Assembly (NCBI GenBank): GCA_023667045.1
Contig: JAMPAU010000004.1
Span: 1-64,000 of the forward strand
From: Ruminococcus flavefaciens
Lineage (GTDB): Bacteria > Bacillota > Clostridia > Oscillospirales > Ruminococcaceae
Length of the DNA stretch: 64,000 nt
Reading direction: 5' to 3'
Shown: positions 1 to 10,459 of the stretch, one piece after another
Layout: each line of letters starts with the position of its first letter
How positions within the stretch are numbered: the first letter of the stretch is position 1
The notes under the pieces: generated by a model
Told to the model about the DNA's origin: nothing
Database searches by the model: none
The model's input: the letters and a program-made list of their open reading frames with translations, nothing else
Program-made: the position numbers and the translations under genes

Positions 1-1298
1 CGGACGTTGTGCCTAAAGAAAAGCTGTCATATATTATGGGAAATCCGCCATTTGTGGGGGCTAATAATGTTTCAAAAGAGCAAAAGGCAGAATTATTTAG
101 TATTTTCGGCGAAAAGAGCAAAGCTGGTCTGTTAGACTATGTAACAGGTTGGTATAAAAAATCAGCAGAACTTATGACAGGAACGAAAATAAAAACTGCC
201 TTTGTTTCTACAAACTCTATAACACAGGGCGAACAAGTGGCTATTCTTTGGAAAAGTCTGTTTGAAAATGGTGTAAATATTGACTTTGCACACCGCACAT
301 TTCGTTGGGATAGTGAAGCAAATCTGAAAGCACAAGTTCATTGTGTTATAGTTGGTTTTAGCACCGTAAAAAATAACAGTCTAAAAAAATTGTATGATTC
401 AGAGAATTTTCAGATTGTAAAAAATATAAATCCTTATTTAGTAAACGCCGATAATATCCTGATAGAACGCCGAAAAAAGTCTGTTTGTGACGTTCTGCCC
501 ATTACTAAGGGCTGTCAACCTACAGACGGCGGAAATCTTATTATTGAAAATACTGATTATGCAGATTTCATTAAAAGAGAGCCTAAAGCCAAGAAGTACA
601 TCAAGAAACTTGTCGGAGCAAAAGAATATATCAATGGTCTTAATCGCTATTGCTTGTGGTTGGTAGGGGTTTCACCAAGCGAACTGCGTTCAATGCCGTT
701 AGTTATGCAGAGGATAGAGAAGTGCAGGGAAATGCGACTTAACAGCACCGATAAATCCACTCAAAAGTTAGCTGAAACTCCTACAACATTCAGAGAGACA
801 TATAATCCTGATACATATGTTATAATTCCCAGTACATCATCTGAAAACAGAAAATATATTCCTATCGGATTTTTAGATAATGACGTTATATCTACAAATG
901 CGAATCTTATTATTCCAAATGCTACTATTTATCATTTTGGAGTGCTTACTTCTAACGTGCATATGGCGTGGGTGCGTACTGTCTGCGGACGTTTAAAGAG
1001 CGATTATAGATACTCAAAAGATATTGTGTACAATAATTTCCCATGGTGTAATCCCACACCAGAGCAGGCGGAACGCATAGAGCATACCGCAAGGGCAATA
1101 CTCAACGCACGTGCCAAATATCCCGAATGCTCACTTGCCGACCTCTACGATGAATTGACTATGCCTCCCGAATTAAGAAAAGCACACCAGCAAAATGATT
1201 TTGCTGTGATGTCGGCTTATGGCTTTGATAAAAAAATAACTGAATCTGAATGTGTGGCGGAGCTTATGAAACTCTATCAGAAGTTGACAAAGCTTTGA
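1..1298 (+). CDS. MmeI-type DNA methyltransferase, 5'-truncated by window edge
   Basis: Partial gene: the frame is open from base 3, so the true start lies outside the window. About 12 residues into the visible part is NPPFVG, the catalytic NPPY/F motif of N6-adenine methyltransferases. It is followed by FVSTNSITQGEQ and FAHRTFRW, which I recognise from the MmeI group (large type IIG/IIL proteins carrying methyltransferase, target-recognition and C-terminal helical regions). The remaining ~330 residues fit the recognition domain and the helical tail ending around PPELRKAH. Family members methylate adenine, and many also carry an N-terminal nuclease; that part is not visible here, so methylation-only versus restriction-modification cannot be decided. 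The next gene has its own promoter. Confidence 0.85.
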   Translation, partial: DVVPKEKLSYIMGNPPFVGANNVSKEQKAELFSIFGEKSKAGLLDYVTGWYKKSAELMTGTKIKTAFVSTNSITQGEQVAILWKSLFENGVNIDFAHRTFRWDSEANLKAQVHCVIVGFSTVKNNSLKKLYDSENFQIVKNINPYLVNADNILIERRKKSVCDVLPITKGCQPTDGGNLIIENTDYADFIKREPKAKKYIKKLVGAKEYINGLNRYCLWLVGVSPSELRSMPLVMQRIEKCREMRLNSTDKSTQKLAETPTTFRETYNPDTYVIIPSTSSENRKYIPIGFLDNDVISTNANLIIPNATIYHFGVLTSNVHMAWVRTVCGRLKSDYRYSKDIVYNNFPWCNPTPEQAERIEHTARAILNARAKYPECSLADLYDELTMPPELRKAHQQNDFAVMSAYGFDKKITESECVAELMKLYQKLTKL

Positions 1299-1317
1299 AT
1301 AAAATTTAATAAAGCTG

Positions 1318-1346
1318 TTGAAAACTGTGCTATTTTATGGTATAAT
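1318..1346 (+). promoter_or_regulatory. Sigma-A-type promoter of the PLD-ATPase gene
   Basis: TTGAAA, 17-base spacer, TATAAT, ending 36 bases before the start codon at 1383. A ribosome site (AGGAG) follows. The PLD-ATPase gene can therefore be expressed separately from the upstream methyltransferase. Confidence 0.7.
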
Positions 1347-1382
1347 TATGCTGATAATATAAAATTCAGGAGAAGATATAGT

Positions 1383-3368
1383 ATGGACAATGAGCAGATA
1401 TCGTTTTTTGGTAATGAAGATGAAACCAAAGCTGAAGATGATACCGGAAATTTAAATGTTGTAAGGCTTGATTTTATTGAGGGACTTTCTATGAAATGGC
1501 AGGAGCTTTTCAGTGGATTTGATACAATTAAAGCAATTACTTTTTCTTCAGGAATAAATTTTATGGCTAAATTACTTGATTTGTTTGAAGAAGCAGAGAC
1601 TATTTTTGGTTGTGAACGGATTATGTCCTATTCTCTTAATGAAGTAATGGCTTTTCAGACTGTACTTCTTGAACATATACGTTCTGATATATCCAAGGAT
1701 AAACTCATTGAAAGAATAAACAATGGTACAATCCATATGTTAGTTACAAGAACAAAGATTTCTCACGAAAAGATTTACCTTTTATCAGATAAGGACGGAC
1801 GAAAACGAGTTATTATGGGTTCTGCAAATATGTCTGATAGTGCATTTTCAGGCAGACAGCGTGAAAATATTTCCTTTGTGGACGGAGAAGAAGCATATAA
1901 CTGGTATCTTGATATTTACAATAATCTCAAAGATGACTGCACCGATGAAATTACCGGAAAAGCTATAGCTGTTGCAGACTGTGAGGAAAATATTGGTGAG
2001 CTTCCTGTTTCGCAGACTGCGAAATCCAGAAAAGTATTGGCAATTGTTCCCGATACAGATATAAATGAAGATGTAGAATTTGCACTTGATATTTCCAGAA
2101 TTTCCGCTGATTTAAAGCCGATGCTTCCAAAGTCCAATAAAAAAGGGAAAATAATGCTTTCACCTGCCACTATCACAACTATGAGAAGCCATATATGTGA
2201 TGCTAAAGCCGTAGAACGTGAAAAAAGGCGTGAATTTCCGCAGTTTATTGTTGATACATATAACAGCACAGCAACACTGAACGGCAAGAAATTTGACCTG
2301 TCGCCGTCCAAAGATGAGATTAAAAATGATGTTTTACTTTTCATTCAGTATATGAATGGCTATGAAATGTTTCATGGTAATTATAAAAATATGCAGAGGA
2401 GATATTTTGAATTTGCAAACTGGTTTTTCTGTTCGCCGTTTATGGGAATTATGCGTGATACAGCAAACAGATATAACCAGAATACTTTGCCTTATCCTAT
2501 TTTCGGGCTGATTTACGGACAAAGTAAGGCGGGTAAAACGTCATTTCTGGAAACACTTTTAATAATGATGATTGGAAGAAAAACAAAAATTCCTGCCAGT
2601 GATTTTACAAGAAAAAACATAGAAGGCTTGCGTTATGAAGTTAAAGGAGCTCCAATAATTGTTGATGACCTGACTAAAAAAAGATTTGATGACCATGCTG
2701 TTGAAACTATAAAAAATGATATGTTTGGTTTTTCAGATAAAAATATTAATTATCCTGTTGTTGTTATCAGTGCAAATGAAGACCTCAAAAATGTTACACA
2801 GGAGATTATCAGAAGAACGATTATTTGTCATGTTAGTGCAGGGCTTACAAATACAGAAGTTATGAAGAGTAATACCGTCCGCAAGGTGCAGAAAAATATA
2901 TCAACTGCTTTTTATCGTGAATATTTAAGACGTATGTTTGAAAAAATCCCCGAATTGATTGAAAATATGAAAGATGATGAGGCAGAATCTGCTCCTGATA
3001 TTCTGGAATTATCCTCCAACATTATTTATGATATTTTCAGTGAAGTTTGTGAAGATGAACTTCCTGACTATATCAGACGGCTTACACTTATGGATTATTT
3101 CGGCGAAAAAGTTACTGCAAGCAATGTTATTACAACTATTAAAAACGCATGGAATACAAGCAAAGAGCAGTTTGTTGTTGATAAAAAGAAAAATATTTTA
3201 CAATATAATGCAGGACAAACATATGATGCGGCAAGAATTATAAAAGAACTTCCTGAAACTCTTGAGCCGAAACAGTCAAGGGAATGGGTTATGATGAATT
3301 TTGATGAAGCAAAAAAGTTTTTTGAAGTTGACTTTAAAATCAGCTTTTTTGACAGATTCAAAAAATAA
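1383..3368 (+). CDS. PLD-like nuclease domain fused to a P-loop ATPase
   Basis: 661 residues in two modules. Residues ~25-190 resemble a phospholipase-D-fold nuclease: HEK at 128-130 and GSAN at 146-149 form one HKD-type active site, as in single-motif PLD nucleases (BfiI-like) that dimerise. Residues ~310-490 carry a P-loop ATPase: Walker A GQSKAGKTS (379-387), Walker B PIIVDD (424-429), a sensor-like ISAN (462-465) and a possible arginine finger pair RR (477-478). The arrangement recalls SF3 or AAA+ helicase-type ATPases. The C-terminal ~170 residues are unassigned. Its neighbour is an MmeI-type methyltransferase, which suggests an anti-phage or restriction role; this is inference from context. 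I do not know a named system with this exact fusion. Confidence 0.7.
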   Translation: MDNEQISFFGNEDETKAEDDTGNLNVVRLDFIEGLSMKWQELFSGFDTIKAITFSSGINFMAKLLDLFEEAETIFGCERIMSYSLNEVMAFQTVLLEHIRSDISKDKLIERINNGTIHMLVTRTKISHEKIYLLSDKDGRKRVIMGSANMSDSAFSGRQRENISFVDGEEAYNWYLDIYNNLKDDCTDEITGKAIAVADCEENIGELPVSQTAKSRKVLAIVPDTDINEDVEFALDISRISADLKPMLPKSNKKGKIMLSPATITTMRSHICDAKAVEREKRREFPQFIVDTYNSTATLNGKKFDLSPSKDEIKNDVLLFIQYMNGYEMFHGNYKNMQRRYFEFANWFFCSPFMGIMRDTANRYNQNTLPYPIFGLIYGQSKAGKTSFLETLLIMMIGRKTKIPASDFTRKNIEGLRYEVKGAPIIVDDLTKKRFDDHAVETIKNDMFGFSDKNINYPVVVISANEDLKNVTQEIIRRTIICHVSAGLTNTEVMKSNTVRKVQKNISTAFYREYLRRMFEKIPELIENMKDDEAESAPDILELSSNIIYDIFSEVCEDELPDYIRRLTLMDYFGEKVTASNVITTIKNAWNTSKEQFVVDKKKNILQYNAGQTYDAARIIKELPETLEPKQSREWVMMNFDEAKKFFEVDFKISFFDRFKK

Positions 3369-3385
3369 TGTTAATGGAGGAAAAT

Positions 3386-4405
3386 ATGATAAACGATAAT
3401 ATTTTAAAATTCGGACTTGAAATAATAGATATGCTTATGAAAGACAGTCGTTTTTCTTTTAACGAAACTGATTTGCAGATTTATGCAGACGGTTTATCAG
3501 CAGATGACAGTGAGCTTATAAAAATTATTGCTGATACAAACAAAGTATATCATAACAGCAGCAGCGATGTACTTAACGGCAATTATCTTATATGTAGCAT
3601 AAATTCTGAAAAAAGTCCAGAAGCCAAAACAATGATACGCTTTAATCTTGATGCATACTATAAAGATGCTATGAAGTCAGATACAGAAAACATTAAGGAA
3701 AAAATTGCACAGGAAATACTCAGTCATAACACCGGTACTGAATTTGATGATATTTTAATTGCTGACGACTATGAAAATCTAAAATCATGCCTTATGATAA
3801 GGGCAATTAATTTTCAGAAAAATTCTGTTCGCCTTGAAAATGCAGTATATAATCGTTTCGGAGATATGGCGATATGTGCATACATGAAAGTTTCACATAA
3901 TGACGGACAATTCATGTCTGCAAAAGTTACAAATGACATACTTAAAAAATATAACGTATCTTCTGAACAGATTATGCAAGATGCTATCAATAATTCGTGT
4001 GTGTTGTATCCTGAACGCCTGTTTTTTAATATGAGTGAACTGTATAATTCACAGTGCAGTGGACTTTCAGCTGATGAAGCACTTGAATGTATAAAAAACG
4101 GCAAACTGAAAATAAATAAATTAAGACCTATGGTTGCGGTTACAAATACTGCCCATCTCAACGGAGCTTCTGCAATGTTTTATCCAGAAGTTGCGGAAAA
4201 AATATCAGAAATATTCGGCGGTGATTATTATGCTGTTTTTATCAGCATACATGAAGTATATCTGCACCCGAAAAATGAATTTTCTCCCAGTTATCTTAAA
4301 AGTAATCTTATTGCAACGAACAATCAGTTTGATGACGAAGATGTGCTGACTTACAAGATATACTGTTATGATTCAAAACGCAAGCAGTTGAAAGATGTAA
4401 AATAG
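3386..4405 (+). CDS. DUF5688 family protein
   Basis: 339 residues from the ATG at 3386, chosen because GGAGG lies five bases upstream; an earlier in-frame ATG at 3368 overlaps the previous stop. The sequence fits DUF5688, a Firmicutes family of unknown function. Recognisable parts are a central YNRFGDMAICAYMKVS stretch and a C-terminal NTAHLNGASAMFYPEV followed by GGDYYAVFISIHEVYL. No signal peptide or membrane segment is visible, so it is probably cytoplasmic. It directly follows the PLD-ATPase gene and is probably cotranscribed. It ends in a TAG directly before a strong terminator, so TAG is a genuine stop here. A short, diverged copy of its 5' end lies at 4976-5024. Confidence 0.75.
   Translation: MINDNILKFGLEIIDMLMKDSRFSFNETDLQIYADGLSADDSELIKIIADTNKVYHNSSSDVLNGNYLICSINSEKSPEAKTMIRFNLDAYYKDAMKSDTENIKEKIAQEILSHNTGTEFDDILIADDYENLKSCLMIRAINFQKNSVRLENAVYNRFGDMAICAYMKVSHNDGQFMSAKVTNDILKKYNVSSEQIMQDAINNSCVLYPERLFFNMSELYNSQCSGLSADEALECIKNGKLKINKLRPMVAVTNTAHLNGASAMFYPEVAEKISEIFGGDYYAVFISIHEVYLHPKNEFSPSYLKSNLIATNNQFDDEDVLTYKIYCYDSKRKQLKDVK
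3406..3454 (+). repeat. Repeat copy A: 5' end of the DUF5688 gene
   Basis: About 48 bases beginning AAAATTCGGACTT and running through ATAATAGATATGCTTATGA. A near-identical copy is at 4976-5024 in the same orientation, with about four substitutions. Confidence 0.7.
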
Positions 4406-5056: not shown

Positions 5057-5371
5057 TTATTTATTTCTGCAAATATATTTTTTTAGGTTATTTTTCGGGT
5101 CTTTTATGAGAAGAACAACAAGCCATACTGACAAAGCTAAAGCGACAACTGAAAGTCCAAGAAATGTGTCGTTAAGCATATCCTGTGCATTAGGCTGAAA
5201 GTATTCCGCACCGCTTTCAAGGTATTCCACAACAGCGTCTACCATCCACATGAGTGAAGCACCCCAGAACATATAGCATAGAGTACCGCATTTCATTTCT
5301 CTTGCGGATTCATTTGTATACCATATAGCCGTTGAAATAATTCCGGCAAAAATAGTAATGAGGAGTGTCAT
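5057..5371 (-). CDS. Small membrane protein, end of the cooS operon
   Basis: 104 residues with about three hydrophobic segments: residues ~1-18, ~30-48 around the cysteine-containing MFWGASLMWMVD, and ~72-90. The tail is basic (KNNLKKYICRNK). Its ATG overlaps the upstream stop (5368-5371), so it is translationally coupled to the 126-residue protein. I recognise no named family. Position at the end of the ABC-transporter/cooS operon suggests a shared, probably membrane-linked, role, but no function can be assigned from sequence. Confidence 0.7.
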   Translation of the reverse strand: MTLLITIFAGIISTAIWYTNESAREMKCGTLCYMFWGASLMWMVDAVVEYLESGAEYFQPNAQDMLNDTFLGLSVVALALSVWLVVLLIKDPKNNLKKYICRNK

Positions 5372-5748
5372 ATTTTTTCTGCCTCCGGAATCTGATTATT
5401 AAATGATTTCTTTAAAAAAGCCTTTTCCACAGCTACACTAACAGCCCATACTGCCGTTACAGTCACAGCCATTGCAACGCCGGAAGTAGACATTTCAGAA
5501 AGCATTTCTATTCTGTCTGCCGGATTTACGGCATTTGTAAGGAAAGGAAAAAAAGGTGTGATTTCTCCGTGCCAAAGATGTTCAAATGCCAGCAGTCCCG
5601 AACCGCCCCATAGCAGACCATTTAAGCGGTCGAGCCTGTCCGTTAATTTCAGTGAATCATCATCTGAATGATTACCTTTTTTCTTTATGATTTTTGATGC
5701 AACAGTAGTAACAATAGCCTCTGTTGCAGGAACTATAAAGCAAGCCAT
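5368..5748 (-). CDS. Conserved-looking membrane protein next to cooS
   Basis: 126 residues. It starts MACFIVPATEAIVTTVASKI, a hydrophobic N-terminus, then a charged linker (~24-45), then LNGLLWGGSGLLAFEHLWHG, a second membrane stretch with Trp, Glu and two His residues that could sit at the membrane and bind a cofactor or metal. A third segment lies near residues 88-110. GGAGG precedes the ATG. It lies 18 bases after cooS on the same strand and overlaps the following small membrane gene. The two look like an obligate pair; the function is unknown. Confidence 0.7.
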   Translation of the reverse strand: MACFIVPATEAIVTTVASKIIKKKGNHSDDDSLKLTDRLDRLNGLLWGGSGLLAFEHLWHGEITPFFPFLTNAVNPADRIEMLSEMSTSGVAMAVTVTAVWAVSVAVEKAFLKKSFNNQIPEAEKI

Positions 5749-5766: not shown

Positions 5767-7872
5767 TTATTTATCCCAGCCGAGAGCCTTACGTTTTTCT
5801 TTCATATCGGCTACTATTTTTTCCGCAAGTGCTACAGGGTCAGTATCTACATTCATTGTAGAGCCGAGCAGTTCCTTTGTACCGTATTTCATGAACTCAA
5901 TAACGTTCTTTGAGCCATAAATCTGAGCCTCAACGCAATGGTATGAACTTATTCCATTAAGTCTGAAACCAAGAGCTGCGTCAATGCCCTTTTCGTTGCC
6001 CCATTCGGGAGAGGAAAAGGCAAAAGGCATTTCATACATTTTATATCCCAATTCATTGGCAACTCCGGCGAAAATACCGCTTGAGCGTGTATTGTCTATG
6101 CACTCACCAACGTGCCATACCGGCGGTAAATCCGGCTCAAGAAATTCACGCAGACTGTCTCCGGCTTTTTCTTTTCCCGAAACTGCACAGTAGCCGAGTT
6201 TCATAAGCGGAAATGATGCACAGCCGTTTGAGAGGATAAGCACATTGTTTTTCAGCAGTGTGTCCGCAACGTCAATAATGCATTTTTCATACAGTACTTT
6301 CGGATTGTTACAGCCTACCATATTGACAATACCAAGAATCTTTCCGCTTTTTACTGCCTCAGCGAGCGGTTTCATACTTCCGAATCTTCTGTGAATATAC
6401 TCAACGGAAAAACCTACTTCCGCTTCAACCTCATACGGCGGTATATAAACCGGAATGCCTTTTCTGTTTTCAAAGCTCTCTATTGCACGCCTTACAATTT
6501 TTTCAGCGAGTTCTTTAGTTTCGCCGATATTTGAATGGCGGTGGTCGTATTCAAATCTTTCAGCCCCGGGCAGTCTTGCGGATTCGCTTGTTGTTACTAC
6601 TACAGTTTTAAAGCACTTTGCCACTTCCATTATAGACGGGAAAACGTCCTGCACGTCTGCAATCCATAAATCCAACGCACCCGTACCAAGAACAAGCTCG
6701 GCTGATACGGCATTTGAAAGAGGAATAACTCCGCTGTATCTGTACATTGCAGAAAGTCCGGAACAGCATATACCATAGAATTTTATACCCTTTGCACCTT
6801 TTGACTTTGCAAGTTCGATTAAATCCTCACGCTTGCCAGCCTCTACTATCTGACTTACAAGCAATGGCAGATGTCCGTGTACTGCAATATTCACATAACC
6901 TTTTTCCAATGCACCTATATTTACCTTTGAAGTTACTCTGTCGCCGACACCGAAAAGACAATCAGTTGCAATTGACGCACCCACAACTCCCGAAAAAGTA
7001 AAAGCAAGTCCGCACCTTAAAAATTGTTGCATAATTGATTTCCAGTCGCCGTCTGTTGCACAGCCTGACTTGTGGTATGCTTCAAATACTTCATGGTATG
7101 CACTTATTGGGATAATATCAATGTCTTTCCATACTTTCTGACGTTCCGGAACAGCACAGGCTGAAATAGTCTTGTATTCGTCCGGAACAGTTCTTGAAAG
7201 GTCGTCAAGAAGTGCGTCGGCGAGGTCTTTGGCAACGTCTTTAAGCGGTCTGTCTTTCTGTTTTATTCCGAAACTTTCGGCGGTACTTCTGACTTTCTGT
7301 TCTCCAAGAATAGGAATGTCAAGCTTGCCCTCTGCGGCATACTTCAGAGCAAGCATTACTTCTCTTGCGTGCATACCGTGCTGTGCCGTACCGGCAGCTG
7401 ATGAACGAAGTAGATTTCTTGCAACTATCAAATCAGCGTCAGCACCGCATACGCCTTTAGGGGCTTTCTGTGTAATACGGCAAGGACCCATATTGCAGAT
7501 TTTACAGCATATGCCAGCGAGTCCGAAATTACATTGAGGTTTTTGTTTGTCAAATCTGTCGAAAGCCGTATCAATGCCGAGTTGTTCCATACGGAGCAAC
7601 ATTTCTTTTACAGCGGGGTCGGGGGTCTGGTCAATGACATCTTGCTTTGACGGGAAAGTCTTACGGTATTCGCTTACAGCGTTCATGTAGTCTTTAATAA
7701 AAGCCTGTGGGTCGTCATTGTCATCTTCACCGTCATGATGAGAGGCTTTTAGAGTAACTGTAGGTATTCCGTGTTCATCAAAACCGATAAGATTTCTGTG
7801 CGAATGAATATGTGAAATATCGTCATGATTATGCTCATGTTCATGATGATGTACGTGATTGTGTTCGCTCAT
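5767..7872 (-). CDS. cooS: CooS-like Ni,Fe-CODH homologue lacking one C-cluster cysteine
   Basis: 701 residues, about 60 more than usual because of an N-terminal tail with 11 His in the first 25 residues. Cysteines for the D and B clusters are present (C114, C122, C123, C126, C131, C142). Of the six C-cluster ligands of true CO dehydrogenases, five can be placed: HGH (332-334), GICC (C370), GCNN (C521), NGC (C551) and GEC (C591). The sixth, the Cys in the usual VQC motif, is Asp409 (ADVQDVFPS). The catalytic Lys region (NEKG, K628) is kept. Family knowledge: such deviants exist, and the characterised CooS-V of Carboxydothermus carries a Fe-S-O hybrid cluster, does not turn over CO and slowly reduces hydroxylamine. 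I infer an enzyme of that type, probably cytoplasmic and dimeric. The ribosome site AAGGAG supports the start. Confidence 0.85.
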   Translation of the reverse strand: MSEHNHVHHHEHEHNHDDISHIHSHRNLIGFDEHGIPTVTLKASHHDGEDDNDDPQAFIKDYMNAVSEYRKTFPSKQDVIDQTPDPAVKEMLLRMEQLGIDTAFDRFDKQKPQCNFGLAGICCKICNMGPCRITQKAPKGVCGADADLIVARNLLRSSAAGTAQHGMHAREVMLALKYAAEGKLDIPILGEQKVRSTAESFGIKQKDRPLKDVAKDLADALLDDLSRTVPDEYKTISACAVPERQKVWKDIDIIPISAYHEVFEAYHKSGCATDGDWKSIMQQFLRCGLAFTFSGVVGASIATDCLFGVGDRVTSKVNIGALEKGYVNIAVHGHLPLLVSQIVEAGKREDLIELAKSKGAKGIKFYGICCSGLSAMYRYSGVIPLSNAVSAELVLGTGALDLWIADVQDVFPSIMEVAKCFKTVVVTTSESARLPGAERFEYDHRHSNIGETKELAEKIVRRAIESFENRKGIPVYIPPYEVEAEVGFSVEYIHRRFGSMKPLAEAVKSGKILGIVNMVGCNNPKVLYEKCIIDVADTLLKNNVLILSNGCASFPLMKLGYCAVSGKEKAGDSLREFLEPDLPPVWHVGECIDNTRSSGIFAGVANELGYKMYEMPFAFSSPEWGNEKGIDAALGFRLNGISSYHCVEAQIYGSKNVIEFMKYGTKELLGSTMNVDTDPVALAEKIVADMKEKRKALGWDK

Positions 7873-7886
7873 GGTATCTGTTCTCC

Positions 7887-8660
7887 TTAAATAATGTATT
7901 CAATGTAATCATCTGTTTTAAGATTGAAAAGTTCAAAGATTTTGTCTCTGACATAAAGGAAGTTTCTGCTTGTTCTGTTTCTGTAGTTTTCGAGAGGTAC
8001 TTTTACAATGCTTTTTATTCTGCCGGGATTTGCCATCATTACAACGATTCTGTCGGCAAGAAAAACAGCTTCTTCAATATCGTGAGTAACAAAAATAATC
8101 GTCTTTTTTTCTTCTCTTGATATATTAAGAATATCGTCCTGTAATTTCATTCTTGTGATAGCGTCCAGTGCTCCGAAAGGCTCGTCCATGAAGATAATAT
8201 CGGGATTTACTGCCAGACCTCTTGCTATTGCGACCCTCTGTTGCTGACCGCCCGAAAGCTGTCTGGGGTAGCGTTTTTCAAAGCCTTTAAGTCCTACAAG
8301 TTCTATGTATTCTTCAGCGGTTTTCCTGCGTTCTTCTTTAGGAATTTTCTTTGATTCAAGACCCAGCTCTACATTTTTCAGAACGTTCCGCCACGGCAGA
8401 AGCCCATAATTCTGAAATATAGTTATATTTTTTTCAGAGGGTTCTTTTACTTCATTTCCGTCAATCTTCACACTTCCGCTGTTTACTTTTTCAAAACCTG
8501 CCAGAGCGTTAAGGAGCGTACTTTTTCCGCAACCCGAAGGACCTAAAAGACAGATAAATTCACCCCTTTCAATATCAAGTGAAACATCATCAAGTACTGT
8601 AGTTTCAGTGCCGTTCTGAACGTACTTTTTGCAGGCATTTTTCACCTCAATGTATGCCAT
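7887..8660 (-). CDS. ABC transporter ATPase, NitT/TauT (SsuB/TauB) type
   Basis: 257 residues from the ATG at 8660, chosen for GGAGG nine bases upstream and the TAATG overlap with the permease stop; an upstream in-frame start is less likely. Walker A GPSGCGKST, signature LSGGQQQRV, Walker B IIFMDEPFGALD and the switch histidine (FVTHDIEEA) are all present. Length and motifs match ATPases of nitrate, sulfonate and taurine importers. It lies between its permease and cooS with short gaps, so import of the solute and the CooS-like enzyme are probably one pathway. Confidence 0.92.
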   Translation of the reverse strand: MAYIEVKNACKKYVQNGTETTVLDDVSLDIERGEFICLLGPSGCGKSTLLNALAGFEKVNSGSVKIDGNEVKEPSEKNITIFQNYGLLPWRNVLKNVELGLESKKIPKEERRKTAEEYIELVGLKGFEKRYPRQLSGGQQQRVAIARGLAVNPDIIFMDEPFGALDAITRMKLQDDILNISREEKKTIIFVTHDIEEAVFLADRIVVMMANPGRIKSIVKVPLENYRNRTSRNFLYVRDKIFELFNLKTDDYIEYII

Positions 8661-9421
8661 TATATCTGACCTCCCCACGCTTTCATAATTCTGTTTTCAA
8701 GGAATCTGAGCAGACTGTCAAGGATAATTCCTATTACGCCGATAACAACGATTGTTGCAAGCAGAATGTCCGCACGGATATTGTTTCTTGCGTCGATTAT
8801 CTGATAGCCAAGACCTGACTGTGAGCCTACCATTTCGCCGGCTACAAGGAAAATCCATGATGTGCCGATAGCGAGATGTATTCCGCTTGCAATCTGTGGA
8901 AATGCTGCCGGAAAGATTATTTTCCATGTAAGCTGTGGCTGTCTTATACCAAAACTTTTTGCAACCTTGAAATATATCGGGTCAATACTTCCGACTGCCG
9001 AAACAGTTGACAGCAGGACAGGGAAGAATCCGGCAATGAAAATGATAATTATTGCAGGAGTATCGCCTATTCCGAAAAGCAGGACAATAAAAGGCATCCA
9101 TGCGGTAGGCGAAATAGGTCTAAGGAGCTGGACGGCAGGGTTTATATATTTGAATACCGCCGGAAGTCTGCCGAGAATAAGTCCGAGAATTACAGCAGAA
9201 ACAACCGATGTAACATATCCTGTTGCAAAACGATACATACTTGTTTTTATATTTTCAAAGAGAGAACCGTTTTGTATTGTTTCAATGAGTGCAAGCAGTG
9301 ACTGATACGGCGACGGAAAAAGTGCGTCACTGTAGTCGCTTATCATATACGCCAACTGCCATATGCCTATAAGTACCGCAATTGATATTACAGCGTTTTT
9401 TACAGATAATAGTTTTTTCAT
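8660..9421 (-). CDS. ABC transporter permease, NitT/TauT (SsuC/TauC) type
   Basis: 253 residues with about six membrane segments, beginning with one at residues ~10-28. The EAA-loop region is visible as KVAKSFGIRQPQLTWKIIFP, followed by SGIHLAIGTSWIFLVAGEM, which is typical of SsuC/TauC permeases. It forms the channel for the ATPase at 7887-8660 and the binding protein at 9422-10348. GGGGTGAT precedes its ATG. Confidence 0.92.
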   Translation of the reverse strand: MKKLLSVKNAVISIAVLIGIWQLAYMISDYSDALFPSPYQSLLALIETIQNGSLFENIKTSMYRFATGYVTSVVSAVILGLILGRLPAVFKYINPAVQLLRPISPTAWMPFIVLLFGIGDTPAIIIIFIAGFFPVLLSTVSAVGSIDPIYFKVAKSFGIRQPQLTWKIIFPAAFPQIASGIHLAIGTSWIFLVAGEMVGSQSGLGYQIIDARNNIRADILLATIVVIGVIGIILDSLLRFLENRIMKAWGGQI

Positions 9422-10348
9422 TTAATCACCCCAGTCATTTTTTACAAATTCGCTGTATGTAGGCGGATTGTCAGAAAGTCCGTATTCCTTTACTTTTTCG
9501 GTTAGGATATTGTATGTATCTTCTGTGATTTCAAGGTTATTATATGAAATCCATTGGAGTGAAGTATCAAGTACCTCATCGCTCTGACTGAAATATTTTT
9601 TTGCTGTTGTTTTTGCTGTTTCCTTGTCGAGAGCGTTTCCAGCTTTTTTATAGCTTTCAACAAACGACTTTGCATCGTTCGGACGTTTTTCTATAAAGCT
9701 GTCTGTAAGCACAAGTCCGCAGCAGATTGAATCTTCCCAGAGTTCTTCAGATGAATAAAGAACTTTTCCGGCATTTATCGAAACGCCCATAGCTCCGAAA
9801 GGCTCTGCCACACAGTAGCCGTCAATCTGTCCGCTTGCGAGTGCGGAGGGCATTTCTGTGGGAGCAAGTTCTGTTACATTTATGTCGTCAATAGTAAGCC
9901 CGCCCTTTGCGAGAGTGTCATTCAGAAGAATATTATGTGACGACTGTCTGTGCGGAATAGCGAAAGTTTTTCCTTTTAAGTCAGATGCAGAGTTAATATC
10001 ATTTGATACAATTACAACGTTTCCGTCACGGTGTCCGAGAGCGACTGCTTTTATGCCGATTCCTTCTTGTTTTGATTTCATGGCAAGCTCAATGAGAACA
10101 GAAGCACCGTCAACTTTTCCGCTGTTGAGAGCGTCAAGCAGTTCAGACCATGAACCAAATTTCACCAGTTCCACTTTAAGTCCGTTTTCCTTTTCAAGTT
10201 CTTCTGCTTCTTCCAGTACAGCCAATGAATGAGTAATCGGCAGATATGCTATTTTTATTGTATTTTCGGAGCTTTTGCTACCGCAACCATTAAGCAGTCC
10301 TGTAGAGAGAATACCTGCAAGTATAAGTGACTTTAATCTTTTTTTCAT
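9422..10348 (-). CDS. ABC substrate-binding lipoprotein, NrtA/SsuA/TauA-like
   Basis: 308 residues from the ATG at 10348; an upstream in-frame ATG exists, but AAAGGAAG sits eight bases before this one. The lipobox is LLNGC near residue 22, so it is an exported, lipid-anchored protein. Features of the nitrate/sulfonate/taurine receptor family include KFGSWSELLDALNSGKVDGA and FAIPHRQSSHNILL, which resemble nitrate-type receptors as much as sulfonate ones. The ligand cannot be told. It is first in the six-gene unit that ends with cooS and two membrane proteins, and a good promoter and palindrome lie just upstream. Confidence 0.88.
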   Translation of the reverse strand: MKKRLKSLILAGILSTGLLNGCGSKSSENTIKIAYLPITHSLAVLEEAEELEKENGLKVELVKFGSWSELLDALNSGKVDGASVLIELAMKSKQEGIGIKAVALGHRDGNVVIVSNDINSASDLKGKTFAIPHRQSSHNILLNDTLAKGGLTIDDINVTELAPTEMPSALASGQIDGYCVAEPFGAMGVSINAGKVLYSSEELWEDSICCGLVLTDSFIEKRPNDAKSFVESYKKAGNALDKETAKTTAKKYFSQSDEVLDTSLQWISYNNLEITEDTYNILTEKVKEYGLSDNPPTYSEFVKNDWGD

Positions 10349-10434
10349 ATTCCATACTTCCTTTATATTGTTATTAATCACATCTGAAAACTATGATATA
10401 ATTTCAAAAATATTAATACCAAATATTATTTATT

Positions 10435-10453
10435 ATTCCTATCTGTTTGGTAT
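10435..10453. promoter_or_regulatory. Palindromic operator candidate at the ABC-cooS promoter
   Basis: ATTCCTATCTGTTTGGTAT has the form ATwCC-N9-GGwAT and lies at or just after the predicted start of transcription of the minus-strand operon. The pattern resembles sites of Rrf2-family regulators such as the cysteine regulator CymR, but the match is by eye. A second partial half site (ATACCAAA) lies at about 10416-10424. Confidence 0.45.
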
Positions 10454-10459
10454 GCTTAT

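What the first reader, a model, noticed from the sequence alone, without database searches (positions are those of the whole stretch)
6646..6648. CooS homologue with Asp in place of a C-cluster cysteine
The codon for residue 409 reads GAC (Asp) in ADVQDVFPS, where true CO dehydrogenases have VQC. All other C-cluster ligands (HGH, C370, C521, C551, C591) and the D/B-cluster cysteines are present. A single ligand exchange is exactly the defect of the characterised deviant CooS-V of Carboxydothermus, which holds a Fe-S-O hybrid cluster and acts on hydroxylamine, not CO. Automatic annotation as CO dehydrogenase would therefore probably be wrong. The chemistry in this organism is unknown.
Basis: partly seen in the sequence, partly recalled or inferred. 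Interest (0 to 1): 0.78.

Follow-up and report, generated by a model that had tools for sequence, protein, structure and literature searches.

The report
Odd CO-dehydrogenase relative in sulfur regulon
A gut-type bacterium's gene that databases would name carbon monoxide dehydrogenase belongs to a known, uncharacterised group with one changed active-site ligand, and its neighbours and control sites in relatives suggest that it helps the cell obtain sulfur rather than handle carbon monoxide.

Summary
In detail: GAC (Asp409) stands at the place of Cys333 of CODH-II; the other C-, B- and D-cluster ligands and both acid-base residues are kept. It is no oddity of this gene: Asp (122) or Glu (3) stands there in all 125 compared sequences at least 50% identical. 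This is the published clade B, group B-1 (Inoue 2019). The comparison with CooS-V fails: CooS-V lost Cys295, kept here, and its other marks are absent.
New here, from genome comparison: clade B sits in sulfur-assimilation operons and regulons. Cysteine synthase lies directly upstream in 13 of 13 loci of the sister branch that keeps all cysteines; sulfur genes lie within 5 kb in 21 of 122 Asp-type loci (not the window's) and 0 of 40 other CooS loci. One operon starts with a SAM riboswitch, two with Cys-type T-boxes; shared operators link it to metY genes or, in this genome, to a metQNI-like operon. The Ile567 site is Ala (Asp/Glu type) or Gln (sister branch). Best reading: an enzyme releasing sulfur from an imported small sulfur compound. 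Substrate, metal content and chemistry are unproven.

The parts
5767..7872 (-). CooS-like protein, clade B (B-1), 701 aa
   Evidence: ORF; TIGR01702 504.8 bits; best solved CODH E 4.2e-125; tree
6646..6648 (-). Asp409 codon GAC at the C-cluster Cys333 (Cys2) position
   Evidence: census
7798..7863 (-). His-rich N-terminus, residues 4-25 (11 His)
   Evidence: sequence; 5 or more His in the first 80 aa of the ORF in 109 of 122 Asp-type, 3 of 3 Glu-type, 0 of 13 Cys-type, 0 of 40 other CooS
7887..8678 (-). ABC ATPase of NitT/TauT/SsuB type
   Evidence: same-strand homologue within 4.5 kb of CooS in 94 of 122 Asp-type, 2 of 3 Glu-type, 11 of 13 Cys-type (the other two at contig ends), 0 of 40 other loci
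8660..9421 (-). ABC permease (TauC/SsuC type)
9422..10381 (-). substrate-binding lipoprotein, SsuA/NMT1_2 type (SsuA_fam 141.7 bits, cut-off 163.5; NMT1_2 over cut-off); closest solved chain 3UN6 (E 7.1e-64), then chains named nitrate transport, CmpC, taurine- and sulfonate-binding
5368..5748 (-). small membrane-type protein 'm126'; elsewhere beside LarE-LarB-LarC (Ni-pincer cofactor) or a metal-sensing repressor; probable nickel link
   Evidence: in 25 of 26 genus genomes with full-length CooS and 3 of 74 without
5057..5371 (-). small membrane-type protein 'm104', partner of m126
   Evidence: no Pfam or NCBIfam match
10437..10454 (-). operator-like 18-mer CATACCAAACAGATAGGA upstream of the operon; the only other match in this genome (up to 1 mismatch to the pattern) is the same 18-mer at a metQNI-like operon

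Best explanation
The gene is a clade B (group B-1) CODH-family protein whose operon serves sulfur acquisition. Proposed working: the SsuABC-like transporter brings in a small sulfur-containing anion (a sulfonate, thiocyanate or similar). The CooS dimer takes low-potential electrons through its D and B clusters to a C-cluster variant held by His, four Cys and one Asp, probably with nickel supplied with help from the His-rich tail and the m126/m104 pair. There the substrate is bound in a pocket with Ala in place of the Ile of CO-acting enzymes, a C-S or S-O bond is reduced, and sulfide is set free for CysK/MetY. Shown here: ligand set, the 567 residue, operon partners, riboswitches and shared operators in relatives, one shared operator in this genome. 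Inferred: substrate, reductive chemistry, nickel.
For: Cysteine synthase 50-229 bp upstream (between tblastn matches), same strand, in 13 of 13 Cys-type clade B loci; CysK, CGS/MetY-family or CysE within 5 kb in 21 of 122 Asp-type loci (20 on the same strand) and 0 of 40 non-B CooS loci (Fisher 1e-12 and 0.0023, not corrected for relatedness). L251: SAM riboswitch (87.5 bits) > two CGS/MetY-family genes > CysK > CooS > ABC, one strand. L073 and L198: T-box (109.9 and 118 bits) with UGC at the specifier place > CysE > CysK > CooS. L079: CysK > ABC > CooS > MetY > LysR. Palindrome CCTATYRACCTASTRGG, up to 1 mismatch: two sites per whole genome in 3 of 3 genomes, one at the CooS operon, the other at MetY in two and at an amino-acid-type ABC binding protein in one; none for the reversed pattern. 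Own genome: two operator sites, CooS operon and a metQNI-like operon in a cluster with an Rrf2 regulator, CysE and ThiF-rhodanese. Binding protein related to chains named taurine-, sulfonate- and nitrate-binding. Position 567: Ile in 42 of 42 non-B rows, Ala in 122 of 122 Asp/Glu rows, Gln in 13 of 13 Cys-type rows. No ACS subunit (PF03598) and only one Prismane-family match in the genome.
Against: 101 of 122 Asp-type loci, the window's among them, and 3 of 3 Glu-type loci show none of the panel's sulfur genes within 5 kb. The same Ruminococcus operator heads a gene that I read as phenylacetate-CoA ligase in three relatives, one-mismatch sites lie inside a gene and before an oxidoreductase-like gene, and G044, which has CooS, has no site. 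The panel was chosen after seeing the loci, and the 18-mer pattern was drawn by eye. NitT/TauT binders also take nitrate and other ligands. No assay links any clade B enzyme to sulfur; the acid-base His and Lys of CO chemistry are kept.
Confidence: 0.55

Rival explanations
1. Nickel-import reading (Inoue 2019): the ABC transporter brings in a metal such as Ni2+, the His-rich tail hands it to the active site, and the protein is a CODH variant; sulfur genes are near by chance or because Fe-S enzymes need sulfur.
For: Proposed in PMC6344411 because the binding protein resembles 3UN6; 3UN6 is also the best match here. The His-rich tail is specific to the Asp/Glu type. m126/m104 lies beside LarE-LarB-LarC and a metal-sensing repressor elsewhere; a CbiO-like ATPase (my reading) and LarE-LarB-LarC precede CooS in L085 and L092.
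Against: The transporter is present in Cys-type loci that have no His-rich tail and always have cysteine synthase. A SAM riboswitch, Cys-type T-boxes and an operator shared with MetY are sulfur, not metal, controls. The binding protein's other solved relatives are named for anions.
Confidence: 0.2
2. CooS-V-like hybrid-cluster enzyme: no nickel, Fe-S-O cluster, acting on hydroxylamine or another nitrogen species.
For: A C-cluster cysteine is replaced by a carboxylate; CODH-family proteins with altered clusters show hydroxylamine reduction (PMC9311411).
Against: Different ligand (Cys333, not Cys295), type II D-cluster, acid-base His kept, Asn not Glu two residues before Lys. Nickel-linked neighbours; reading the recurrent clusters I recognised no nitrogen-stress genes, without a dedicated search. 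Sulfur control.
Confidence: 0.08
3. A working CO/CO2 enzyme with an Asp-ligated C-cluster that supplies electrons, for instance for reducing imported oxidised sulfur, so that the sulfur link is indirect.
For: Acid-base His93/Lys563 and the other ligands are kept; carboxylate ligands to Fe-S clusters are known elsewhere (recalled).
Against: Ile567 is Ala or Gln in 135 of 135 clade B rows; no ACS subunit gene in the genome; almost no clade B operon has maturases in PMC13056359. A sulfite-reductase-like cluster (my reading) occurs in 7 of 128 loci, within 4 genes of CooS in one.
Confidence: 0.12
4. Degenerate or regulatory protein without catalysis.
For: PMC13056359 mentions a possibly degenerated function.
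Against: Cluster ligands other than Cys2 and the catalytic His and Lys are invariant in clade B sequences down to about 51-56% identity to one another; transporter genes are kept beside it.
Confidence: 0.05

Closest known systems
Ni-CODH clade B, structural group B-1 (Inoue 2019, PMC6344411; R. flavefaciens CODH in PMC13056359)
   Same: Cys2 to Asp/Glu, His261 and Cys1, 3, 4, 5 kept, acid-base His and Lys, type II D-cluster, His-rich N-terminus, NitT/TauT ABC genes
   Different: Nothing found in the protein; added here are the sulfur operon/regulon evidence, the 567 and 561 changes and the nickel-linked membrane pair
Cys-type sister branch (features of group B-4; 13 loci here)
   Same: Asn at the place two before Lys, changed 567 (Gln), ABC genes, on one side of a 100% SH-aLRT branch with the Asp/Glu type
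   Different: keeps Cys333, no His-rich tail, 36-39% identical to the window protein, cysteine synthase adjacent in 13 of 13
CooS-V of Carboxydothermus (clade D, group D-1)
   Same: CODH scaffold with one C-cluster cysteine replaced by a carboxylate
   Different: Cys295 not Cys333; type III D-cluster; Tyr for the acid-base His; Glu two before Lys
CODH-II and other clade E/F CODHs
   Same: fold, B/D clusters, acid-base pair, five of six C-cluster ligands
   Different: here Asp for Cys333, Ala for Ile567, Glu beside Cys526; no ACS subunit gene in the genome

Membership tests
Ni-CODH clade B, group B-1 | second C-cluster Cys replaced by Asp or Glu | tested here: met
   Asp409
Ni-CODH clade B, group B-1 | His261, Cys1, Cys3-5 kept | tested here: met
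Ni-CODH clade B, group B-1 | acid-base His and Lys kept | tested here: met
   H165, K628
Ni-CODH clade B, group B-1 | type II D-cluster Cys-X7..13-Cys-Cys | tested here: met
   C114-X7-C122-C123
Ni-CODH clade B, group B-1 | His-rich N-terminus | tested here: met
   11 His in residues 4-25
Ni-CODH clade B, group B-1 | NitT/TauT ABC genes in context | tested here: met
Ni-CODH clade B, group B-1 | placement in the published clade B of a full CODH tree | tested here: inconclusive
   groups it with R. flavefaciens/albus sequences and apart from clade E/F-like rows at 100; the authors' reference sequences of clades A, B, C, D and G were not in the tree
CooS-V type (clade D-1) | Cys295 to Glu | tested here: not met
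   C370 kept
CooS-V type (clade D-1) | type III D-cluster, Tyr for acid-base His | tested here: not met
CooS-V type (clade D-1) | Fe-S-O hybrid cluster | not testable with these tools
   needs purified protein
CO dehydrogenase proper | complete C-cluster ligand set | tested here: not met
   Asp409
CO dehydrogenase proper | CO oxidation | not testable with these tools
   needs assay
sulfur-assimilation operon enzyme | operon or regulon shared with Cys/Met genes | tested here: met
   in relatives; in this genome only by one shared operator and not by neighbours

The most novel reading that the evidence does not exclude
Clade B 'CO dehydrogenases' as a whole are nickel-iron-sulfur enzymes of anaerobic sulfur assimilation: they reductively free sulfide from a small imported organosulfur or thio-anion, a chemistry new for the CODH fold, ancestral to the clade and older than the Cys-to-Asp exchange.
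Probability: 0.35. Interest if true: 0.85.

Novelty: new member of a known kind. Interest (0 to 1): 0.6.

Why it matters
Clade B genes occur in many rumen, gut and mouth bacteria (record titles). ABC-type cooS loci are counted among putative CO users in a gut survey (PMC11338639, passages), and two 2026 surveys leave the role of clade B open (PMC13056359; PMC13240472; passages seen). A sulfur role would take these genes out of CO budgets, add a new reaction to the CODH/HCP fold and point to a hidden sulfur source of gut anaerobes. It turns an open question into plain growth and binding tests.

Tried and rejected
CooS-V analogy: rejected on ligand position and three further marks. Recruitment of another cysteine: none in the alignment column. 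Asp as the functional switch: weakened, since the Cys-type branch has the same operon. Riboswitch in the window itself: none at Rfam gathering scores. Rfam over 43 loci: sulfur-type elements only in L251, L073 and L198, plus a T-box before a CGS-family gene on the opposite strand in L078. ATP sulfurylase (PF01747) in the own genome: none; other sulfate routes not searched. Plasmid search (E up to 1e-60): only R. albus 7 and one distant record. Papers: search listings 39, 40, 91, 92 and 96 showed no report of a sulfur role for clade B; of the papers holding the terms I looked at passages of PMC6344411, PMC13056359, PMC13240472 and PMC8776680, which give ABC transporters and no function. PMC8776680 also ties ABC-transporter genes to clades D-F, which my 40 controls do not show. 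PMC2940859 has none of five CODH/sulfonate terms; PMC5640608 passages link no cooS to sulfur limitation. PMC11338639 noted cysteine synthase beside cooS, mainly in Megasphaera (11 of 12 genomes), without a function. Structure prediction of CooS and m126 was not obtained. Thiocyanate, carbonyl sulfide and sulfonates were weighed as substrates; nothing here separates them (COS reduction by CODH is recalled only).

Full report
Observation. The ORF at 5767-7872 (-) encodes 701 aa; the codon at 6646-6648 is GAC on the coding strand. Against solved CODHs and in CODH-II numbering, Asp409 takes the place of Cys333. His261, Cys295, 446, 476, 526, acid-base His93 and Lys563 are all kept, as are the B/D-cluster cysteines.

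What it is. The exchange is the mark of a described group. Inoue 2019 (parts 1-5 of 8 read) lists group B-1: Cys2 = D/E, type II D-cluster, His and Lys kept, His-rich N-terminus, and for clade B the NitT/TauT ABC genes. All these were tested and met. The 2026 survey PMC13056359 (passages) names R. flavefaciens CODH in clade B and awaits biochemical characterisation of any clade B enzyme; PMC13240472 (passages) calls the role of clade B unknown. CooS-V is a different case: only Cys295 is lost there (PMC9311411, part 1 and passages).

Census. Counts include the own genome. In the window's genus, 26 of 100 genomes have a full-length copy. In the class around a genome with a Veillonella-like copy it is 30 of 150, and in the own class 24 of 391 at E 1e-150, one of them the Cys type. 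Over 178 compared proteins Cys2 is Asp in 122, Glu in 3, Cys in 13 relatives that share the clade B Asn two residues before Lys, and Cys in 40 others, none with that Asn. A tree of 93 rows (quick method) puts the 61 clade B rows on one side of a 100% SH-aLRT branch against 32 clade E/F-like rows, the 13 Cys-type rows and the 48 Asp/Glu rows each at 100; two ligand changes suffice. The published references of the other clades were not in this tree, so that the Cys type equals group B-4 is inferred from its features.

Pocket. Ile567 of CODH-II is Ile in 42 of 42 non-B rows, Ala in 122 of 122 Asp/Glu rows and Gln in 13 of 13 Cys-type rows. That this Ile lines the CO site in CODH-II is recalled, not looked up. 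Besides 409 and 632, 45 alignment columns separate the Asp/Glu type from all others, among them Glu for Ser525 beside Cys526.

Neighbourhood. In 128 distinct loci the steady partners within four genes are the binding protein (103), ATPase (100), permease (96) and, in Ruminococcus-type and some Lachnospiraceae loci, m104 (25) and m126 (24). By tblastn rules the binding protein lies beside CooS in 96 of 122 Asp-type, 2 of 3 Glu-type, 11 of 13 Cys-type and 0 of 40 other loci.

Sulfur link. Recurrent further neighbours, named by my reading, are CysK, the CGS/MetY family, CysE, LysR, RidA, PatB-like and LarE. A panel of 13 CysK, CGS/MetY and CysE proteins, chosen after I had seen them, was then run on all 178 loci: within 5 kb they occur in 13 of 13 Cys-type, 21 of 122 Asp-type, 0 of 3 Glu-type and 0 of 40 non-B loci. 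Full 5-kb flanks exist for 10, 87, 2 and 34 of these. Beyond 5 kb the panel matches in 7 Asp-type loci. The controls were picked by hand from the non-B matches. Two of the 21 (L121, L127) rest on a CysE match of 45% identity alone, one (L233) on CysK 4.8 kb away, one (L078) on a gene on the other strand. NCBIfam confirms examples: CysK above cut-off in L251, L073, L111 and L079, CysE (L073) and the OAH/OAS sulfhydrylase family (L111) above cut-off; the L251 CGS-family protein is below the cut-off of every model shown, 25 of 42. The Asp-type cases come from Ruminococcus, Lachnospiraceae, Megasphaera, Clostridium and further unnamed families (f162, f172, f213, f175).

Control elements. L251 has a SAM riboswitch at 5368-5476, then two CGS/MetY-family genes, CysK, CooS and the ABC genes on one strand. 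L073 and L198 have a T-box before CysE, CysK and CooS, with UGC at the specifier place; that place is my reading of the alignment. These three are the only such cases among 43 loci searched. In Pseudobutyrivibrio-type loci a palindrome heads the binding-protein gene. Whole-genome search in three genomes (up to 1 mismatch) gives two sites each and none for the reversed pattern; the second site heads MetY in two and an amino-acid-type ABC binding protein in one. For Ruminococcus I drew an 18-mer by eye from seven upstream regions. In the own genome it matches twice (1 mismatch each, identical letters), at this operon and at an ABC operon whose best NCBIfam models are MetQ, MetN and MetI, all below cut-off (NlpA lipoprotein in Pfam above). 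That operon lies in a cluster with an Rrf2 regulator (Rrf2 above cut-off, CymR below), a serine acetyltransferase (EpsC model above) and a ThiF-rhodanese protein. In three other Ruminococcus genomes the second exact site heads a gene that I read as phenylacetate-CoA ligase; two of them have one further one-mismatch site, inside a gene or before an oxidoreductase-like gene beside an Rrf2-like gene; a fourth, G044, has CooS and no site. Reversed-pattern hits in G000, G018, G009, G067, G044 were 0, 2, 1, 0, 0. So the own-genome regulon is suggestive, the Pseudobutyrivibrio one stronger.

Nickel. The m126 gene is found in 25 of 26 genus genomes with full-length CooS and 3 of 74 without. Away from CooS the pair lies before LarE-LarB-LarC in L310 and L311 and beside a metal-sensing repressor in L314; in L312, L313 and L315 I saw no nickel gene next to it. 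With the His-rich tail this favours a nickel enzyme and a role of the pair in nickel handling. That is inference.

Mechanism and doubt. I commit to sulfur release from an imported small sulfur compound (0.55, mostly for the sulfur role; the chemistry is less sure). Against it: most Asp-type loci, the window's included, have no sulfur gene next door; substrate and product are unknown; the CO-type acid-base pair is kept. The nickel-import reading can be true in part at the same time, since m126/m104 may serve nickel while the ABC transporter serves sulfur.

Noticed in passing
window 5057-5748; L310, L311, L314: m126/m104, an unnamed pair of small membrane-type proteins; m126 has an invariant EH-x-WH-x-E stretch in 30 aligned sequences. 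The pair lies next to LarE-LarB-LarC or a metal-sensing repressor elsewhere: candidate nickel transport or handling pair.
   Followed up: partly
NC_014825.1 60213-62234 (plasmid of Ruminococcus albus 7): A 90% identical CooS lies on a large plasmid record (two plasmid records matched, one typed conjugative and one non-mobilizable; which is which was not checked), so the operon may be mobile.
   Followed up: no
window 3-4405: MmeI-like methyltransferase/target-recognition fragment, a PLD-type (NgoFVII-like) protein and a DUF5688 protein: probable restriction or defence cluster beside the operon.
   Followed up: no
L325, L326, L328: The exact Ruminococcus operator 18-mer heads a phenylacetate-CoA-ligase-like gene (my reading) in three Ruminococcus genomes; unexplained under a pure sulfur regulon.
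   Followed up: partly
L085 67-3701, L092 131-3882: CbiO-like ATPase (my reading), LarE, LarB, LarC upstream of clade B CooS on the same strand.
   Followed up: partly
L211, L212, L213, L245, L246: LarE-like gene directly after the ABC genes, without LarB/LarC matches in the fetched stretch.
   Followed up: no
L213 4712-6526 and 15178-17021: Group II intron parts on both sides of the operon.
   Followed up: no
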